DNA from: Onchidella celtica
Taxonomy: Eukaryota; Mollusca; Gastropoda; Systellommatophora; Onchidiidae
NCBI GenBank assembly: GCA_963931925.1
Contig: OZ007571.1
Span: 39,038,430-39,102,429 of the forward strand
DNA: 64,000 bases
Direction of reading: 5' to 3'
Shown: positions 14,937 through 44,133 of the stretch, one piece after another
How the letters are laid out: each line of letters opens with the position of its first letter
Numbering within the stretch: position 1 is the first letter of the stretch
Program-made: the position numbers and the translations under genes
Notes under the pieces: model-generated
Database searches by the model: none
Told to the model about the DNA's origin: nothing
The model's input: only the letters and a program-made list of their open reading frames with translations

Positions 14937-15727
14937 TCAAGCCACGTTTATTTCTAAATTGTGAGCAAATGCTCGAAGGAACTGCCGCAGATCATACTGA
15001 TCTCGATTTTGCTGTACAACAGTGATTCGTGTGTTCATTGTCACGTATCTTTTCATTCGCTGAGTCAGGTCTCTGCCTTGTAGAAGCTGGGTTCGGTTTG
15101 CCCGTTGAAGGGCTTCCTCCCGTCTTAGGGCTTCGATGAATCGAAAGATGGAAGGATGATGAGTTTCCGTTGATCCCTGAAACGCATTGTGCCAACTCTC
15201 TAGCTGGTTGTTGGTTCGTGGCAGTCCTGCATCTTGTCTGGCTTTCACACTCCACATATGTACGGGAAACAATGGCTGTCGTCTGTCTCCCCGTCTGTTT
15301 CTCCGCCCCACGTAGTTGTCTTTGAAGTAATTTACAAGACGCATTACTTCTGCTGGGTAGTCTGCCACCAATTCATCAAAGGCATCGCTCATTTCATCCA
15401 CTGGTAGAAAGGCAAGAGCAAGGAGCATTTTCAGTGCCATCCGAATATTGTCGTCTTGCACATATAACCGTTGCAGTCCGTTTTCCTGAATCTTTCTCCA
15501 GAGCGATTGTCCCAAGTGAAAGTAACAGCCGTAGATGTGCGTTTGAGGAAATGCTTCAATGAGTGCAGCTTTGGAAGCTAGTTCAAAGTCGATCAGTACA
15601 CTTCTTGGAGCGAGTCCAGGTTTCAGTGATTTGATTTCAGCCCACATTTGAGAGTATGTGACTTGTTGCTTATTTGGGAGTAGAACAAAAATGCAGGGAA
15701 GCACATTGTTTCGTATCAAAGCTGTCA
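14937..15727 (-). pseudogene. MULE transposase, C-terminal part
   Basis: Continues the transposase after the insertion. It holds the PCIFVLLPNK block, the second catalytic Asp in LIDFELASKAAL followed by GCYFHLGQSLWRKI, and the Glu in NNQLESWHNAF, completing the MULE DDE triad. It ends with a normal stop at 14937. From ATG 17515, the two parts sum to 1,449 nucleotides, exactly 483 codons, if one copy of the 6-bp duplication is removed with the insertion. Confidence 0.88.
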
Positions 15728-16851
15728 CGAGTGGAGTGAGCGGGATTCAAGGATTACGGGGGCATGGAAGTGTAGGATTGACTCACGGGATAGTGAGGCT
15801 GCTCACCTATATTGACTTCTGTTAGTTAACGTTGAAGCGTGCATGTTGTGAGTGAAGTTGAGGCGTAGTAGAGGCAAAATCTGAATAGTCAGATCACTGC
15901 AAGTTAAGAAGTCCCAGGGGACAGACGTGAGATCAGAGCAGTCGGGAGATTGTTGTGTGTTTTCCAGTGATGACTGGTAGGTTGAACTATGATTTATAAT
16001 TATGATGATTGATGTACTATATTCTCCTATGACCATGATGTAAATAAGTTATATGTGAGGACTGTGAAAGTCATTGATTACTGTGTATAGAGATGTGCGC
16101 AATGAGCGATAGATGTACGTTAGGATCATGGATTCGTAGCGAGTCTGAGTACGGTGTAACACGGTGGAGGTGTGTTACCGTAAGATGTGTGGTGAGTGAA
16201 ATGTGGACTATTGTGAGTACGCTTGATGGTTCGTAATGAGTGGTGAAGTGGATAGTAATTGTGTGGTGTATTACAGATGTAATGTTATTCTTATAGGTGC
16301 CGGGGTCGGGCAGAGAAGCCACCCGCGGTGATCGGACTTGTGCCGGGGTTGGGCAGAAGGCTACCCACAGGCCGCCTGAGTGAAGCTGTCGCGCAGGACA
16401 GCGGGAGCACATGAGTCGTGGCAGTCTGGCCACAGACAGGGACGTTGTTATTGTCCTTATTGCTATTCAAATGTTAATGGGCTATTACGATGTTAATGTG
16501 CTATTAAGATGTTAATGTGCCATTGAGAATATAATGTGCTATTGAAATATTAATGTGCTGTTAAGACCTCGAGGGGAGATTGAGATACGGAGATTAGGTT
16601 GAGCAGGCGCCAATAAGAGAGGCCAGCAAGTAATATATATATAGATGTGAGGCTGAGGCCAGAGCATATTTTAGAAGGTATTATCGGGGTGTGGACCCGT
16701 AGAGGAATGAATGTCGGGAGTGCTGACCATTGTATGGTATTTGAATTGAATAATGTAATGCACGTATCTCTTTATTTTTATGTATAATAAATGTGTGAGT
16801 CTGTTTGGTTGTTCTGTTAAGTGTTATACTCGTTCGTTCGTGATTGTTGTC
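15728..16851 (+). mobile_element. LTR-like insertion inside the MULE transposase
   Basis: A 1,124-bp insertion flanked by CTGTCA at 15722-15727 and 16852-16857. It has no long frame. On the plus strand it has a TATATATATA box near 16640, a polyadenylation-like AATAAA near 16785 about 70 bases before the end, two copies of a GC-rich repeat (about 16297 and 16340) and a short 20-22-bp tandem repeat (16464-16565). This layout (U3, TATA, poly-A signal, U5) suggests a solo LTR. It does not show the usual TG...CA ends inside the duplication, so the class is uncertain. Confidence 0.6.
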
Positions 16852-16857
16852 CTGTCA

Positions 16858-17515
16858 TAATTATTACATTTCCCAGTCTGGGATTTGTGACAAAAGCATG
16901 CACAGTGTACACTTGATAGAAAAGGGATGGTGACACTTTGAATGTACCATCACACATCCAGTGTTCGGAATCGTGTAAAGTCTGAAGAAACTGATCTGTA
17001 CTGAAAATAAACATCCGATGAACATCTCCACGCCCACTGTCATAGAGCAGGAAGCCACGCTGGTCTGCTGTTTGTCTCAACATATCAGGTATGAACAGTT
17101 CTCCAACATTAGCAGGAGCTGGGGGGTTATTGTCTGTTGCTTTCCTTTTCCGTCTGATGGTTTGACGCAGATTTGTGGAAGAACCAACAGCTGCCGCAAT
17201 TTCTTCATTAACTTCGGCCATTGCATCTTGCACGATTCTTCGTGGTGGATCCCGTGTTCTTACTGCAGCTGTTTTTACAGTGTTTTCCACTCTCCGGGCT
17301 GCCACTTCCGTAGGGTTTGGTGGATGCGTGTGGACGCCACTGCTCACTGGGGGTTGTTGTTGCTTACGATACTGAAGGCTTGTCGTTAGGCGACCTTTAC
17401 AACCTGTCTTGGCACACCTCCAATTGATTGTATTTAACTTTGTTTTATCCATCCTGTACAAAAAACCTTCATGACTTATCATGTCACTTCCTTTTCTTGA
17501 AATTATGAATTCCAT
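16858..17515 (-). pseudogene. MULE transposase, N-terminal part
   Basis: A stop (TAA) lies just upstream, so the first usable ATG is at 17515. An FLYWCH-type zinc finger (GFLYR, WRC, C-x4-C, then HTHPP) binds DNA in this family. After a basic linker come the N-terminal MULE region and the first catalytic Asp in MCDGTFKVSP, then FYQVYTVHAF. The frame is cut at 16857 by an inserted element; it continues in phase at 15727. Apart from this insertion no stop or frameshift was seen, so the element was intact until recently. Confidence 0.85.
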
Positions 17516-17699
17516 TATGGGCAAATTTTTCAAACGATCCAAACATTACTGTGACACTACAATATAGCGTTGCCTTCTAACGACCGTCCAGAAATTCACC
17601 TCAGTGAACTTAGCTTACAAAGTGTACACAAACACGAAACATCAGCAATTGAAACATAAGTCTGCGTCCCTGTGAGCATATCTCATTCTGACCGGTTTT

Positions 17700-26195: not shown

Positions 26196-28115
26196 TCAAA
26201 AATATGTCTGATAACTTTTCAAGTCCCATAAGAAGAATTTCTGATATCTCGTGTTTAAGTCCTGAGTCGTTTTATTTCTGTTATTGACATGTTCCCAAAG
26301 CAAACTGAAATCCGATGGCGTAGATCTAGAGGCAAAAATGGGACACTTATCTCCTTTTTCTTTGTAGCAATCTTTCGCATCCATGCCCAAATCGTCGATA
26401 CCTCTCTGTCTGCCTAAATCATAGGCTTCTACCCCGCCAGCCAGGTAGGGAAGAATTCCGAAAAGATAGAAATTTTCCCTGAAAAGACCTGGAACATGAT
26501 GAGAAGCTGCCAGTAGACTAGGAATCACGCGTCGAGTCATCAATACACCAAAAGCCTTGCAGTGTGGTAAAGATATATTTTTTGAGAAGAGTGATTTGAA
26601 ATGGTCGCGATGAAGGTTTGCCAAGGACATGGAGCCCTCAGAATGAAAGACACAAAACATTGCACATTTGCCTACAATTGTTTCAGCAGTTGGTAACAAC
26701 CCATGGAGAAGTTTGTATGTATCAACGAATACGTCATCGTTCATTCTAAAGACAAAGGGCGTTCGGCGACAGTGCTGCATCGCCCAACGTATACCCATCA
26801 AATCTTTCAGAGTGTCATTTTCTGTGGAATCCATGAAGTCTCCTTGCACCAAATCTCCATGTTCTCTCTGTTCATATTCCAGCATTTTCTGAGTATTTGG
26901 AATCGCAGTTTTACCCGTGAGAAAAACCCCCACAACCGTAAAAGGTTTATTCTTTGGCGAGTTCAAAATTGCTTCTCTAATGCGTTTTCTGTTCTCCCAG
27001 GCGCCTGGAGAACTATTCACAAGGAAAAGAATATCTGCTCTTTGTGACTCTTTACATAGGTCAGGACAGTTCAGACGATAATGCCGGAACGATTTCTCAT
27101 CACGCAGACCTCTTCGACTTCCTGCATCAAATAACGTTTTCACACTTCTGACTCGTTCTAAAAATCCCTCTGAGAAGAGAGGTTCGGATGCCACATCCAC
27201 CAAATCCAGGTCATTGTCATCTGCCATCTGATTCTGTAAACTGGCCGGGTCAGACTCCATATCCCCCTCGACGTCAAGATCAGTGATGCTGAGGTTGATT
27301 TGTTTGTTCAAGTCAGAGTCTTTCTCCAGCTGAACGAAACTTTTCTCCCTGTTGCTGCTTAGCTTATCACCTTTGGAAAGATCACCAACAGCTTGGTCTC
27401 CTTCCTCATTACGAGATTCAGAGTGAGTATCGTTTACTGCTACGGTCTGCTGAGACTGGTCAGATTTTTGTGGCTCAACCTGAAAAACCTGATCTCTCTC
27501 GAACATCACAGCCAGTAGTTGTTTCTCCAACTTCAGAGAGTCGGTGTCACCTTTGAAAGTTGCCTGTTTAAATTTTGGTCGCCTATTCAGCAGCTTATTC
27601 TCGTCTGGTCGCATAACTTCGGCAGCCTTTTTCTTTAGATTATTCCTTGTTTCATCAGCAGCATTCACTGGCACCTCCATAAAATCGTCCCCATTATACT
27701 CTAAATATTGCAAATCCCTAACTGAACTTCTTGATACTCCTTCATTTTGATCAAAAGAAACGAGAGTTCCTGCCGGATAAAAATCGAGACATCCTCGCTC
27801 AACATCGCGCTTGATAATTCCAACCCGAAGAAAGTAATGCTCTCTAAGATCGTGGTGTACGGAACTAAATACGTGTCCTGATGATATGACAGAGTCCAGC
27901 CTCAAGCGTTTCCCAGCGGGATCGACAGTCTCTACACAGATTGGTAAATCTAACATCCAGCGATTCCCATTGCCTGGGCCGTCCTCCGCTACATTTGATG
28001 GCCGGATCTGCAGCATAAGAAGCTGCCAGAGGCTAATGGCGACAAAAAATTGAAACAAAGTTGTTGGAATGTTGCGGAGCATAGATTTCAAGGGGGTGTT
28101 CCAAAAATGCTTCAT
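26196..28115 (-). CDS. Beta-1,3-galactosyltransferase-like protein (GT31)
   Basis: Single-exon frame of 639 residues. The only in-frame ATG near the start is at 28113-28115; the open frame beyond it has no ATG and runs into a pyrimidine-rich CACAG acceptor (28118-28119), so a 5'UTR intron is likely. Residues about 15-35 form one hydrophobic segment, making a type II Golgi membrane protein. A long, acidic, Ser/Gln-rich stem (about 150-340) precedes a GT31 domain (about 360-580): ADILFLVNSSP, R-x-x-I-R, GDFMDS...TLK, FRMNDDVFVD and FYLFGILPYLAGG. Typical B3GALT proteins are 320-420 residues, so the stem is unusually long. The usual DDD reads NDD (about 459-461) and the usual EDV reads ENF, so activity is uncertain. 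N-glycosylation sequons are present. GT31 membership is likely; donor and acceptor are unknown. Confidence 0.85.
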   Translation of the reverse strand: MKHFWNTPLKSMLRNIPTTLFQFFVAISLWQLLMLQIRPSNVAEDGPGNGNRWMLDLPICVETVDPAGKRLRLDSVISSGHVFSSVHHDLREHYFLRVGIIKRDVERGCLDFYPAGTLVSFDQNEGVSRSSVRDLQYLEYNGDDFMEVPVNAADETRNNLKKKAAEVMRPDENKLLNRRPKFKQATFKGDTDSLKLEKQLLAVMFERDQVFQVEPQKSDQSQQTVAVNDTHSESRNEEGDQAVGDLSKGDKLSSNREKSFVQLEKDSDLNKQINLSITDLDVEGDMESDPASLQNQMADDNDLDLVDVASEPLFSEGFLERVRSVKTLFDAGSRRGLRDEKSFRHYRLNCPDLCKESQRADILFLVNSSPGAWENRKRIREAILNSPKNKPFTVVGVFLTGKTAIPNTQKMLEYEQREHGDLVQGDFMDSTENDTLKDLMGIRWAMQHCRRTPFVFRMNDDVFVDTYKLLHGLLPTAETIVGKCAMFCVFHSEGSMSLANLHRDHFKSLFSKNISLPHCKAFGVLMTRRVIPSLLAASHHVPGLFRENFYLFGILPYLAGGVEAYDLGRQRGIDDLGMDAKDCYKEKGDKCPIFASRSTPSDFSLLWEHVNNRNKTTQDLNTRYQKFFLWDLKSYQTYF

Positions 28116-28424
28116 TACTGTGTATCCAAGGAAGAAACATACAACAAGCAGACAGGTAGGTATAAATAATCTAGGTATGAGCACTTATAGGCACAAGTTA
28201 ACTTAACACCGCCATTTCAGTTCCTTAGATGCTGAAACATTCCTGGTGTACAAATTCAATCGTTCAATAAAACTGACTACAATTATTGTATCTCCGGTTA
28301 TCTCCCAGTTACAAACAAGGATTAGTTCCCTTCCACGCTGAAAGGTCAAGGGCGTTATCTCCTTTGGTGTTTCAGTTTGATTGGTCTTGTACCAAACAGC
28401 TGACAGACCTCATGTCCTGTGTTT

Positions 28425-33720: not shown

Positions 33721-33772
33721 TATCCCGGTGTAGCAGGCCAGATTATACCCCCGCCAGACTTTACCCGGGGTT

Positions 33773-33826
33773 AAACTGGCCTAGCCCAGAATATCCCCCG
33801 GGGTATATTCTGGGCTAGGCCAGTTT
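33773..33826. repeat. Left terminal palindrome of fold-back element
   Basis: Fifty-four bases reading almost the same on both strands: AAACTGGCCTAGCCCAGAAT runs into a CCCCGGGG centre and back out through its inverse, ending GGCCAGTTT. Only one base pair near the centre breaks symmetry. Confidence 0.9.
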
Positions 33827-36456
33827 ATACCCCGGGGTTTACTTTGGGCTAGGCCAGACTATACCCCCCCCCCCCCCAGTCCAGATTATACCCCCTACTT
33901 TTTTTTTAAAACAAGTCAAGACCGTAGTTTATTTCAACTTTAGTTTGAATTGTCCATTATCACTGTCATCAGATATCATATTGAAGCATACATTTTTGAC
34001 TCTTGTAAATTATGATACATTTAAAAGGACATAAACATGCTTAAAAAGCATTGATTTACAAAAGGTGAAAATCCATTGAAACTGATATGATTAAACTTCA
34101 ACACTAATTTTACTTGTGTCCGTTGGTATTATTATTGTTCTGGTTTTTTTAATAATTAGTTGACCATGGGTTAAACATGTATTGTATTTTTTTTGTTTGG
34201 CACCACTAACATATACTTAGTGGCAAGGTATGAACTAATTATAAGACTCATAAGTGTAAAGTTATCTGAATCTTATTATAATTTTTGAAAATAAGAAATG
34301 TGCTTGATATGTCGGAACAATTAGATCTACATACAAAGTTACACTGATGCAGAGAGAAAGGCCAGAAAAGAATACATAGAGAAAAAAACAACAACAACAT
34401 TTTAACAGCTGAACTGGCAGATGGTGCAATTCCATCATCCAGCAGACATTAAATACTTCACACAAAACTAAATACATACTAAAATTGTTTCACATAATGA
34501 ATTTAACCTGTCCAGATCCACTTGAAACGTAACAGAAAGCTAACCAGTAATATACAATAATAACAATAAGAACACCAAATCATCTTATTTACTCTTGAAA
34601 ATAAAGAGAATATAATCAATATCAGAATCACCATCATCTTGGAATAATACAAAGATAAGAGGGAATATAAAAATGACCTACACATCATTCTAGAATCTAT
34701 AAGCAGCAATAATATATGTAATATATGTGTGCAAGTACATGTAAAAAATAATGTGCTAAATCTTTTCAACTATTCAAGTAGAACTGGACTGAAAGCTTTA
34801 GCGAAGTAGCTTTGATAGTCATGTAAAATGACAGATTAAATCCACTGAGACAACAGTGCATTGCAGAAAGTAATTATAGTATGTTATGGCAAAAATTCGA
34901 TGGATCATGTTGCATGAACATGTCTTGTTAGTAAATTCTTTGATAGCGTATTTGTAGAAATGTATACATTTTATGTAGCTCATGGTTTAAGGCACTGGAT
35001 TAGTGTCACTCACGTTCGTTGGCATGTTGTAGTTGTTTTTGTAGTTGATTGCCATTGAGTAAAATTTGCACGGTACTGTTTGTTTGGCACTGACATACAC
35101 ATCCCAATGGATGAAATAATTAACGGACTCATAAAAATGAAGTCATTTTAAATATTTTTTTGTGTACAAATACACAGTTGTTAAATCCCTTGGCAAGGGA
35201 CGTGTTAAGCTTAGGAAGGTAAAGGCGGACAAGGTCTTTTCTTTTTTTATTTTTATTTCATTTCACTCGCGAGTGATATTCCCTTACTCACTATAAGTTA
35301 TAACACACAAGTTCAGTCTTTCAAATACATTGCAAACTAATCCAGTGTCTTAAACCGTAATGTACATGAAATGTATATCTTTCTACAAATAACCTATCAA
35401 AGAATGATACTCACTGACAAGAAATACTGTTAATGTAACATGATCCATCGAATTTTGCCTCAACATGCTATAGATCTAATTACCTTTTATAATGCACTAC
35501 TTTTGTCTCAGTGGACCTACTCTGTCGGCCTACACAACTGTCAAGGCTATTTAGTATTTCACTAAAGCTTTCTGACCAGTTCTACTTGAATATTTGAAAA
35601 GATTTAACACGTTTTTTATATATAGTTGATACACATACATTGCTGCTTATAAATTCTAGAATGATTTGTAGGCATACGCTGCCATTTTTACACTCCCTCT
35701 CATATCTTTGCAATTTCCAAGATGATGATGATGATTCTGATATTGATATTTCTCTATATTTTCAAGAGTAAATAACATGATTTCGTGTTCTTATTGTTAT
35801 CATTATTACTGGTTAGCATTCTGTAACGCTTCAAGTGGATCTGGACAGGTGGAGTTCATCAGTCGCAAACATTAAGTGCCTATTTAGTTTTATATCTGCT
35901 GGATGATGGAATTGCACTATCTGTCAGTTGGATTATCATTATTATTTTTTTCTGTGTGTTCTTTTCTGGCCTTTTCTCCCTACATCATTGTAACAAAAAA
36001 TACAATGCATGTTTTACTCATGGCCAACTAACTATCAAAATAATAATAATAATAATAATAATATCATCAACACTCACGAGTGAAATTAATGCTGAAGTCT
36101 AATCATGTCAGTTTGAATGGATACTCAACTCTTTTGTATATCAATGCATTTTAAGGCATGTTTGTTCCTTCTAAAATGTATCATGATTTACAGGAGTCGA
36201 GAATGTAGGCCTATGTATGTACACCAAAGTAAACTAAGGCTGAAATAAACTGTTATTATTATTTTCTCTAAATTGCCTTATGACTTGTTGGTGTCAAGAA
36301 TGTGTTCATGTATGTCTTAATATGATATCTGATGACAGTGATGAAGAACAGGCTGAAATAAACTGTGGTCTTGACTTGTTTTTAAAGAAAAAGCAGGGGG
36401 TATAATCTGGACTGGGGGGGTATAGTCTGGCCTAGCCCAAAGTAACCCCGGGGTAT

Positions 36457-36518
36457 AAACTGGCCTAGCCCAGAATATACCCCGGGGGATCGGGGTATAT
36501 TCTGGGCTAGGCCAGTTT
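36457..36518. repeat. Right terminal palindrome of fold-back element
   Basis: The same AAACTGGCCTAGCCCAGAAT arm and its inverse, separated by a slightly longer CCCCGGGGGATCGGGG centre. Confidence 0.9.
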
Positions 36519-36569
36519 AACCCCGGGTATATTCTGGGCGGGGGGTATATTTTGGCCTGTTACACCGGG

Positions 36570-42363: not shown

Positions 42364-43194
42364 ATTGCTCTCGAGCGCTGGGTATGCCGAATGGAAACGT
42401 GTCTAGAGAAGTAGGGCTTGTTTGTGGAAGAAGTAATGTGCTGAAGCTGAATTTTATTTTCAGAGATAAAGTTTTTGTCTTTGTTTTTTTGCAGCACTTT
42501 GTTTGAGAGTTGTGCGGTAGAGAGAAAACCAGTTTTGAAACAGACCTGGTAGTATACTAGTAAGCTAACATCAAACATAACTGTATAGATCACTTAACAA
42601 ACCATAATCATGTCAAGGTACTATCACATTTTATTCTCTGATATTGCACAAAACAACACCTAGCAAATATGAATGTAATTATATTATATAGAATGTATCA
42701 ATAAAATCTCCTTTCAAACTCTTTTTCAAAATGATATTTTGATTTCCCATCAATATCAGTTTGTACCAGACACAATCCAGTCTTTGAACCAACTCATCCA
42801 TCAACCTGCATACCTCATCCTCAATCATACTGACACAACCCCATTCTATTTCTTGCTCACCCCTAACATCTCAACAATATTTAAAACACTAAAAAAAAAA
42901 AAAAACAAGAATTGGTGGGGGTGTGATGCAGATGAAAGTAAAGTTGCAACTGCAAATAGCATTAATTCATTTTGTGACATATAAATGTGGCTACGCAAAA
43001 TGTGAAATCTGGAAATGAAGATTCTCCCTTAAATTTGCTCCTCTTGCACAAGGAGGGCAAAGAGTTATAAATATATAATGGTTGAAAGCTAACAAGAAGC
43101 TTTTGTATATAGGGATATGAACTAACTTAACTATCAGTATCACTCAAACTGTTTCAAAGCCATTCATTTCACCTTGTTATTCACCAAACAATGT

Positions 43195-44133
43195 CCACGT
43201 TTAGGATAGCTCCATTTAAACTGTGCTGACAATGCAGTTCAGCTTTGCAAACTCAGTAACCATTTCTGTATATCACACTGGGCAGTGTACGGTACAATAG
43301 TAAAAAAAAAAAAAGGTCTAAAATACTGGACAATAATTCTTTACCCAGATCACTACATTTCTCCAGTTTTCTGGTGTCCATATGCTGTCACAACCATCTA
43401 TCTCAGTCAGACTTCTAAGTTTCTATCTATCTATTTATAGTATAGACGATTTCCCTAAATCAGACTGGGATTACTTGGAAAAACCTTCACTGCAGGCCTT
43501 TGTCTTCTCTCAACACCTACACATATTCGATGTTACTGGGGTAAAAATAATTCAGGCAAAGTTTCTTCATGTTGTATTTCTGGAAAAATTTCTACATGAA
43601 TTCATACAAAGCATTTGACTAGTGAGAATTTTAGCAACTACAGACAATTTGTTCATTTCCAATCCACGTTTAGGATAGCTCCATTTAAACTGTGCTGACA
43701 ATGCAGTTCAGCTTTGCAAACTCAGTAACCATTTCTGTATATCACACTGGGCAGTGTACGGTACAATAGTAAAAAAAAAAAAAAGGTCTAAAATACTGGA
43801 CAATAATTCTTTACCCAGATCACAACATTTCTCCAGTTTTCTGGTGTCCATATGCTGTCACAACCATCTATCTCAGTCAGACTTCTAAGTTTCTATCTAT
43901 CTATTTATAGTATAGACGATTTCCCTAAATCAGACTGGGATTACTTGGAAAAACCTTCACTGCAGGCCTTTGTCTTCTCTCAACACCTACACATATTCGA
44001 TGTTACTGGGGTAAAAATAATTCAGGCAAAGTTTCTTCATGTTGTATTTCTGGAAAAATTTCTACATGAATTCATACAAAGCATTTGACTAGTGAGAATT
44101 TTAGCAACTACAGACAATTTGTTCATTTCCAAA
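43195..44133. repeat. 469/470-bp tandem duplication
   Basis: Copy 1 (43195-43663) and copy 2 (43664-44133) differ only in a poly-A length (near 43303 and 43772) and one base (CACTACATTT versus CACAACATTT). Each copy holds the same 78-codon frame (43382 and 43852), which I do not recognise and do not call as a gene. Confidence 0.95.

What the first reader, a model, noticed from the sequence alone, without database searches (positions are those of the whole stretch)
33724..36569. Fold-back element with palindromes nested inside a 2.85-kb inverted repeat
The whole element is an inverted repeat, and each of its ends is a separate 54-62-bp palindrome centred on CCCCGGGG with arms AAACTGGCCTAGCCCAGAAT. 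The left end also has extra half-units (CCAGACTATACCCC, CCAGATTATACCCC). GC-rich terminal palindromes on an AT-rich body are unusual; they could form cruciforms recognised by a transposase or a replication-based mechanism. I know no named family with this layout.
Basis: seen in the sequence. Interest (0 to 1): 0.75.

Follow-up and report, generated by a model that had tools for sequence, protein, structure and literature searches.

The report
Non-autonomous fold-back Ginger1 transposon family
The long inverted repeat is one of very many copies of an animal jumping gene that has lost its own enzyme gene; a related 10-kb copy in the same genome still carries that enzyme, a retrovirus-like integrase, and the odd GC-rich palindromes at its ends contain the CCGG sequence that the element inserts into.

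Summary
In detail: window 33729-36564 is a 2836-bp inverted repeat with ~1.25-kb arms, a ~331-bp loop and CCGG-containing palindromic arrays at both ends. It is a high-copy mobile element. The own genome (1.14 Gb eukaryote) holds 3272 exact copies of the 20-base arm and 2224 exact CCGG-TGTA ends. Copies have TGTA...TACA ends and a 4-bp target duplication, CCGG in 10 of 10 fetched 2.8-kb copies. That is the published signature of Ginger1 transposons (PMC2836005). A probable autonomous relative was found: a ~10.1-kb copy with the same ends, related arm blocks and an open 650-aa H2C2-zinc-finger/DDE-integrase/OTU frame; 8 copies have this frame open. The window element's loop keeps a 22-codon relic of that gene. 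So it is a fold-back, non-autonomous Ginger1 family. Unusual: arms far longer than the published 40-270 bp; three extra CCGG sites in each end; and insertion of copies into the outermost of these, by a rough estimate ~14 times more often than into an average CCGG. Eight paper searches found no description of this form.

The parts
33725..33728 (.). Left copy of the 4-bp target site duplication CCGG
   Evidence: CCGG at both ends in the window copy and in 10 of 10 fetched 2.8-kb copies; uninterrupted paralogous sites
33729..36564 (.). The element, 2836 bp, TGTAGCAGGCC...GGCCTGTTACA
33729..35004 (+). Left arm (blocks a, b, c)
   Evidence: blocks similar to those of the 10-kb copy
33729..33895 (+). 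Left terminal array of inverted copies of GGCCAGANTATACCCC around CCGG
33765..33768 (.). Internal CCGG, site 1 (outermost internal); the equivalent site in other copies receives self-insertions
33798..33801 (.). Internal CCGG, site 2 (centre of left palindrome)
33832..33835 (.). Internal CCGG, site 3
35005..35335 (+). Loop between the arms; its first part resembles the sequence upstream of the transposase frame
35171..35236 (+). Relic of transposase codons 405-426 (YTVVKSLGKGRVKLR..., starting at the last residue of the GPY motif)
   Evidence: 94% over 48 bp of DNA, 77% over 22 aa
35336..36564 (-). Right arm
36395..36564 (-). Right terminal array
36448..36451 (.). Internal CCGG of right end (site 3)
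36482..36485 (.). Internal CCGG of right end (site 2)
36523..36526 (.). Internal CCGG of right end (site 1)
36565..36568 (.). Right copy of the target site duplication CCGG

Best explanation
A non-autonomous, fold-back member of a Ginger1 DNA transposon family: an internally deleted relative of a ~10-kb Ginger1 element. A Gypsy-integrase-like DDE transposase with a C-terminal OTU domain, made by gene-bearing copies, is inferred to bind repeated end motifs (GGCCAGANTATACCCC), bring the ends together and insert the element at CCGG, leaving a 4-bp duplication. Shown: ends, target duplication, copy number, ends and arm blocks shared with a copy that carries the open transposase frame, and a transposase relic in the loop. 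Inferred: that this enzyme moves this element, motif binding, excision mechanism and order of deletions. The terminal palindromes arise because each ~34-bp unit is two end motifs face to face, with CCGG at the unit boundaries.
For: 2224 exact CCGG-TGTA ends, control 0. 10 of 10 fetched 2.8-kb copies and the window copy have CCGG on both sides. L027 has CCAC directly repeated on both sides, which shows a direct 4-bp duplication rather than part of the inverted repeat. L009 lies beside a tandem copy of its empty target, GTTGATA-CCGG-CTAGA. The window's joined flanks with one CCGG match 11 other places, all across the join, at 74-92% identity. TGTNR ends and CCGG are the published Ginger1 signature. 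Transposase: H2C2 zinc finger, rve, OTU; D163, D222, E258 with 35 residues between the last two, and GPY at 403-405; best PDB match Ty3 polyprotein, 2.8e-26. Copy C8:50581242-50591371 has both ends with CCGG and blocks similar to the window element. Codons 405-426 (406-426 in L016) are found in 10 of 10 fetched 2.8-kb copies and the window.
Against: Only one fetched transposase copy has both ends: left ends were found near the expected place in 6 of 8 open-frame copies, right ends in 2 of 7 looked at. Its arm blocks are only 69-88% identical to the window element, so it is a sister, not the exact parent. The block order predicted for the parent was not found in 3 further copies. Arms exceed the published TIR range. 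L025 has ACGG left and CCGG right, an imperfect pair. No transposition was observed and no tree was made.
Confidence: 0.93

Rival explanations
1. A classical Foldback/Galileo- or Mutator-type fold-back element (P or MULE superfamily transposase, 7-10 bp duplications, recalled). The window even holds a MULE/FLYWCH fragment at 14.9-17.5 kb.
For: Long arms with internal repeats, as in Galileo and Tetris (abstracts); MULE and FLYWCH domains in the window.
Against: The duplication is 4 bp, CCGG or CCAC; the copy sharing these ends encodes an integrase-OTU protein, with no MULE, P or THAP match in Pfam.
Confidence: 0.03
2. The 10-kb copy is a chance composite: an integrase-OTU gene inserted into an unrelated fold-back element.
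For: Arm blocks of the 10-kb copy and of the window element are only 69-88% identical; the right end was found in 2 of 7 copies looked at.
Against: Six of 8 open-frame copies have the same left end 1.35-1.43 kb before the frame; two fetched copies are 98.8% identical over 3.5 kb covering part of the end array and the gene; the fold-back loops carry codons of the same gene.
Confidence: 0.04
3. A segmental inverted duplication with no mobility.
For: Arms are inverted and diverged.
Against: Over two thousand dispersed ends of the same sequence, and insertions into known targets.
Confidence: 0

Closest known systems
Ginger1 DNA transposons (Bao, Kapitonov and Jurka 2010, PMC2836005; e.g. Ginger1-1_AC of Aplysia and the Hydra families)
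   Same: CCGG-specific 4-bp duplication, TGTNR ends, Gypsy-integrase-like transposase with GPY/F motif and C-terminal OTU domain, non-autonomous copies sharing ends
   Different: Arms ~1.25 kb against 40-270 bp; ~10-kb transposase copy against about 2.6-7 kb; CCGG-bearing palindromic arrays and a fold-back derivative are not mentioned in the parts read (abstract, passages, Ginger1 section)
Galileo and Tetris fold-back elements of Drosophila (PMC3688188, PMC4079207; abstracts read)
   Same: Long arms with repeated motifs, fold-back forms; in Galileo the repeats bind the transposase's THAP domain; in Tetris repeats of the arms expand into tandem arrays
   Different: Galileo is of the P superfamily with a THAP domain; repeat units and enzyme differ; their target duplications also differ (recalled)
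MITE / Ds-type internal deletion derivatives (recalled)
   Same: Non-autonomous copies outnumber gene-bearing ones and keep the ends
   Different: Here nearly the whole element is arm

Membership tests
Ginger1 | 4-bp target duplication CCGG (or CCGT/ACGG) | tested here: met
   10 of 10 fetched 2.8-kb copies and the window: CCGG both sides; exceptions among longer copies: L027 CCAC both sides, L025 ACGG left and CCGG right
Ginger1 | TGTNR termini | tested here: met
   TGTAG / TGTAA ends
Ginger1 | Transposase with H2C2 zinc finger, DDE core and GPY/F motif | tested here: met
   For the gene-bearing relative. The window element has only a 22-codon relic
Ginger1 | C-terminal OTU or Ulp1 domain | tested here: met
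   OTU, 36.3 bits, cut-off 23.3, in the gene-bearing relative
Ginger1 | YPYY motif upstream of the zinc finger | tested here: inconclusive
   YPQHIY at residues 38-43 in one of two copies read, not in the other; no alignment to published sequences
Ginger1 | TIR length, reported range 40-270 bp | tested here: inconclusive
   A descriptive range. The outer block of the 10-kb copy is 231-270 bp, within it; the arms of the fold-back are ~1.25 kb, outside it
Ginger1 | Placement in the Ginger1 clade of an integrase tree | not tested
   No Ginger reference proteins were at hand
Foldback (FB) / Mutator fold-back | Target duplication of about 9 bp (recalled) | tested here: not met
   4 bp
Galileo / P superfamily | P-type transposase with THAP domain | tested here: not met
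   The copy sharing the ends encodes integrase-OTU; no THAP match in Pfam

The most novel reading that the evidence does not exclude
The element builds and rebuilds its own ends by self-targeting. Its enzyme inserts at CCGG, and its ends hold extra CCGG sites; copies insert into the outermost of these (31 junctions; 14 insertions with both junctions), leaving extra 40-42-bp end units that can expand into tandem arrays or be carried along as new terminal units. The palindromic arrays, and perhaps the fold-back shape itself, would then be products of target choice rather than of selection for cruciforms.
Probability: 0.3. Interest if true: 0.6.

Novelty: new variant of a known kind. Interest (0 to 1): 0.42.

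Why it matters
It links the fold-back architecture, which I recall mainly from P and Mutator elements, to an integrase-type (Ginger1) transposase, so the same shape has arisen in another superfamily. It gives an abundant family with a likely source gene (8 open frames), and a natural series of self-insertions in a known target, in which one can ask how an integrase-like enzyme picks CCGG, whether repeated end motifs help, and how terminal arrays grow. How Ginger1 excises is stated as unknown in the 2010 paper (passage read).

Tried and rejected
Rejected: the ~11.5-kb and ~4.8-kb spacings between ends as autonomous copies. The fetched examples carry extra sequence at different places in the fold-back body. 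The integrase hits in L019, L021, L023 and L043 I take for Gypsy-like insertions, from the neighbouring long frames; no family search was run on them. End patterns found nothing in two scans of viral contigs and one of prokaryote genomes. Rfam: no match at the gathering scores. No frame of 100 aa inside the window element, the longest stop-to-stop frame being 91 aa. Right ends of transposase copies were not found in the stretches fetched for 5 of 7 copies (C3:57.4 Mb, C14, C3:49.9 Mb, C18, C11). The predicted parent order a-b-c-b2-gene was not seen in 3 further copies. A CCGG-free body was considered as a signal, but about 2.5 sites are expected from the window's density (62 in 64 kb), so it is not used. 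In one search some rows were trimmed one base off at an end, which does not matter for the distances. In one search the script printed 19 pairings; I dropped one of 10.4 kb, one of 111 bp and three alternative pairings at C10:50.52 Mb, which leaves 14 insertions.

Full report
Observation. The inverted repeat is real from end to end. A reverse-complement self-alignment covers 33724-36569, with 87% identity over 1088 ungapped arm columns. Nothing comparable occurs in 39 other tiles of the window. The ends carry GC-rich arrays on an AT-rich body. A 16-bp motif, GGCCAGANTATACCCC, occurs 13 times in the window at up to 2 mismatches, always in these arrays, in both orientations. Each ~34-bp palindromic unit is two such motifs facing each other, and CCGG stands at the unit boundaries. 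Compared with the true ends, a unit looks like two ends joined tail to tail after loss of the outermost TGTAGC on each side; this is my reading of the sequence. Single strands of the ends fold well beyond shuffles (z -7.0, -9.9, -10.9), so hairpins are possible, but nothing here shows that they matter.

Copies and ends. The window lies in a 1.14-Gb assembly that the tool calls G000; its genes and size are those of a eukaryote. The 20-base arm occurs 3272 times (1628 + 1644), its reversed control never. A stricter end pattern including CCGG occurs 2224 times, control 0. Only the first 100 places are listed; they lie in the first 40 Mb of contig 1. With a tandem array reduced to one place, 86 remain; 27 neighbouring pairs face each other within 13 kb and 10 of these lie 2.75-2.95 kb apart. 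Longer ones that were fetched carry extra sequence, or belong to a second subfamily, about 81-89% identical to the window copy, with end-like pieces in its centre. Ten 2.8-kb copies were fetched and are 93-98% identical to the window copy; with the window copy their mean pairwise K2P is 0.030, while the arms of the window copy differ by 13%. The fold-back shape is therefore older than this amplification.

Target duplication. All ten fetched 2.8-kb copies and the window copy have CCGG on both sides. Because CCGG is its own reverse complement it could be mistaken for part of the inverted repeat. Four facts show that it is target. L027, a longer copy, has CCAC directly repeated on both sides. L009 lies next to a tandem copy of its empty target. 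L018 sits in a known sequence, the end of another copy, with CCGG on both sides. The window copy's flanks joined with one CCGG match 13 places: 2 are the window's own flanks, and the other 11 all run across the join at 74-92% identity, e.g. 1-80 of 89 at 80%. Against this, L025 has ACGG left and CCGG right, an imperfect pair. The element proper thus starts TGTA and ends TACA.

Relative with the enzyme. Bao and colleagues (PMC2836005; abstract, passages and the section on Ginger1 read) describe Ginger1 by CCGG/CCGT duplications, TGTNR ends, 40-270-bp TIRs and a Gypsy-integrase-like transposase, mostly with OTU or Ulp1. I therefore searched the genome for OTU (86 matches, 150 of 171 candidates scored) and fetched one of a set with 650-aa open frames. 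It encodes Integrase_H2C2, rve and OTU with a D-D-35-E triad and a GPY motif. A search with this protein scored only 68 of 14,410 candidates and gave 71 matches; 8 have the 650-aa frame open at 98-100% identity. The copy on contig 8 reads CCGG-TGTAACAGGCC ... GGCCTGCTACA-CCGG over about 10.1 kb. Its blocks resemble the window element: el1-270 at 88%, el267-528 at 71%, el541-1162 at 69%, and its right arm matches el1-985 inverted at 80% (el = window position minus 33723). Of the 8 open-frame copies, 6 have the left end 1.35-1.43 kb before the frame and 2 do not; right ends were found in 2 of 7 copies examined. The window element's loop carries codons 405-426 of this gene, 94% identical over 48 bp, as do all ten fetched 2.8-kb copies (406-426 in L016). 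The simplest history is internal deletion of most of a gene-bearing element whose arms were already long; the exact order of blocks in the parent remains unknown.

Self-insertion. The end pattern preceded by the inward flank of an internal CCGG occurs 38 times: 31 with the flank of the outermost internal site (site 1) and 7 with other flanks, 6 of which fit sites 2 or 3. The outward junction occurs 71 times, including tandem arrays of 40- or 42-bp end units, e.g. at C1:2.22 Mb and C8:59.67 Mb. Fourteen insertions show both junctions 2.8-5.6 kb apart, and at C10:50.52 Mb one copy seems to lie inside another that is itself inserted. Intact site 1 occurs 2137 times, so 31 of 2168, 1.4%, are occupied. 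A rough background is 0.1%: about 1112 insertions (half of 2224 ends) over about 1.1 million CCGG, the latter extrapolated from 62 in the window. The excess, roughly 14-fold, is only an estimate; sequence context, methylation, linked transposition or array growth may explain it.

Judgement. This is a non-autonomous fold-back branch of a Ginger1 family: a known superfamily in an unusual form. I found no printed description in eight paper searches, which cover only open-licence papers and of which only the listed papers were seen; Repbase could not be searched. A survey of bivalve genomes (PMC10294476, Ginger passages only) counts 98 Ginger elements; the passages give no such detail. For Galileo, repeated motifs in long TIRs bind the transposase's THAP domain (PMC3688188, abstract), and Tetris repeats seeded satellites (PMC4079207, abstract); by analogy the arrays here probably serve as multiple binding sites, and their CCGG sites make them targets as well.

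Noticed in passing
window 14937-17542: Fragments of a MULE-type transposase (PF10551) and a FLYWCH zinc finger (PF04500) on the minus strand, perhaps one degenerate Mutator-like element.
   Followed up: no
window 26196-28184: 662-aa open frame with a galactosyltransferase domain (PF01762), likely a host gene.
   Followed up: no
window 43194-44132: Two 470-bp tandem copies, 99% alike.
   Followed up: no
L003 818-1450 (C1:2.22 Mb); C8:59668306-59668704; C14:2703845: End units of 40 or 42 bp expanded in tandem, each starting CCGG-TGTA, a possible seed of a satellite.
   Followed up: partly
C5:45989214-45999717: Self-insertion junctions about 10.4 kb apart, close to the length of the transposase-bearing copy; perhaps an autonomous copy inserted in a family end.
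   Followed up: no
L052 559-1110: Antisense RNase H-like fragment (22.8 bits, below the cut-off of 25.8) between blocks a and b of the left arm; the two near-identical transposase copies share it.
   Followed up: partly
own genome, e.g. C2:61129878, C1:95366925: Thirteen matches with a 600-aa open frame, 40-41% like the transposase, perhaps another Ginger1-like or Gypsy family; not compared with each other.
   Followed up: no
L029, L032, L033, L034, L039: Second subfamily, about 81-89% like the window copy, with end-array pieces in the middle of the element between el1281 and el1283.
   Followed up: partly
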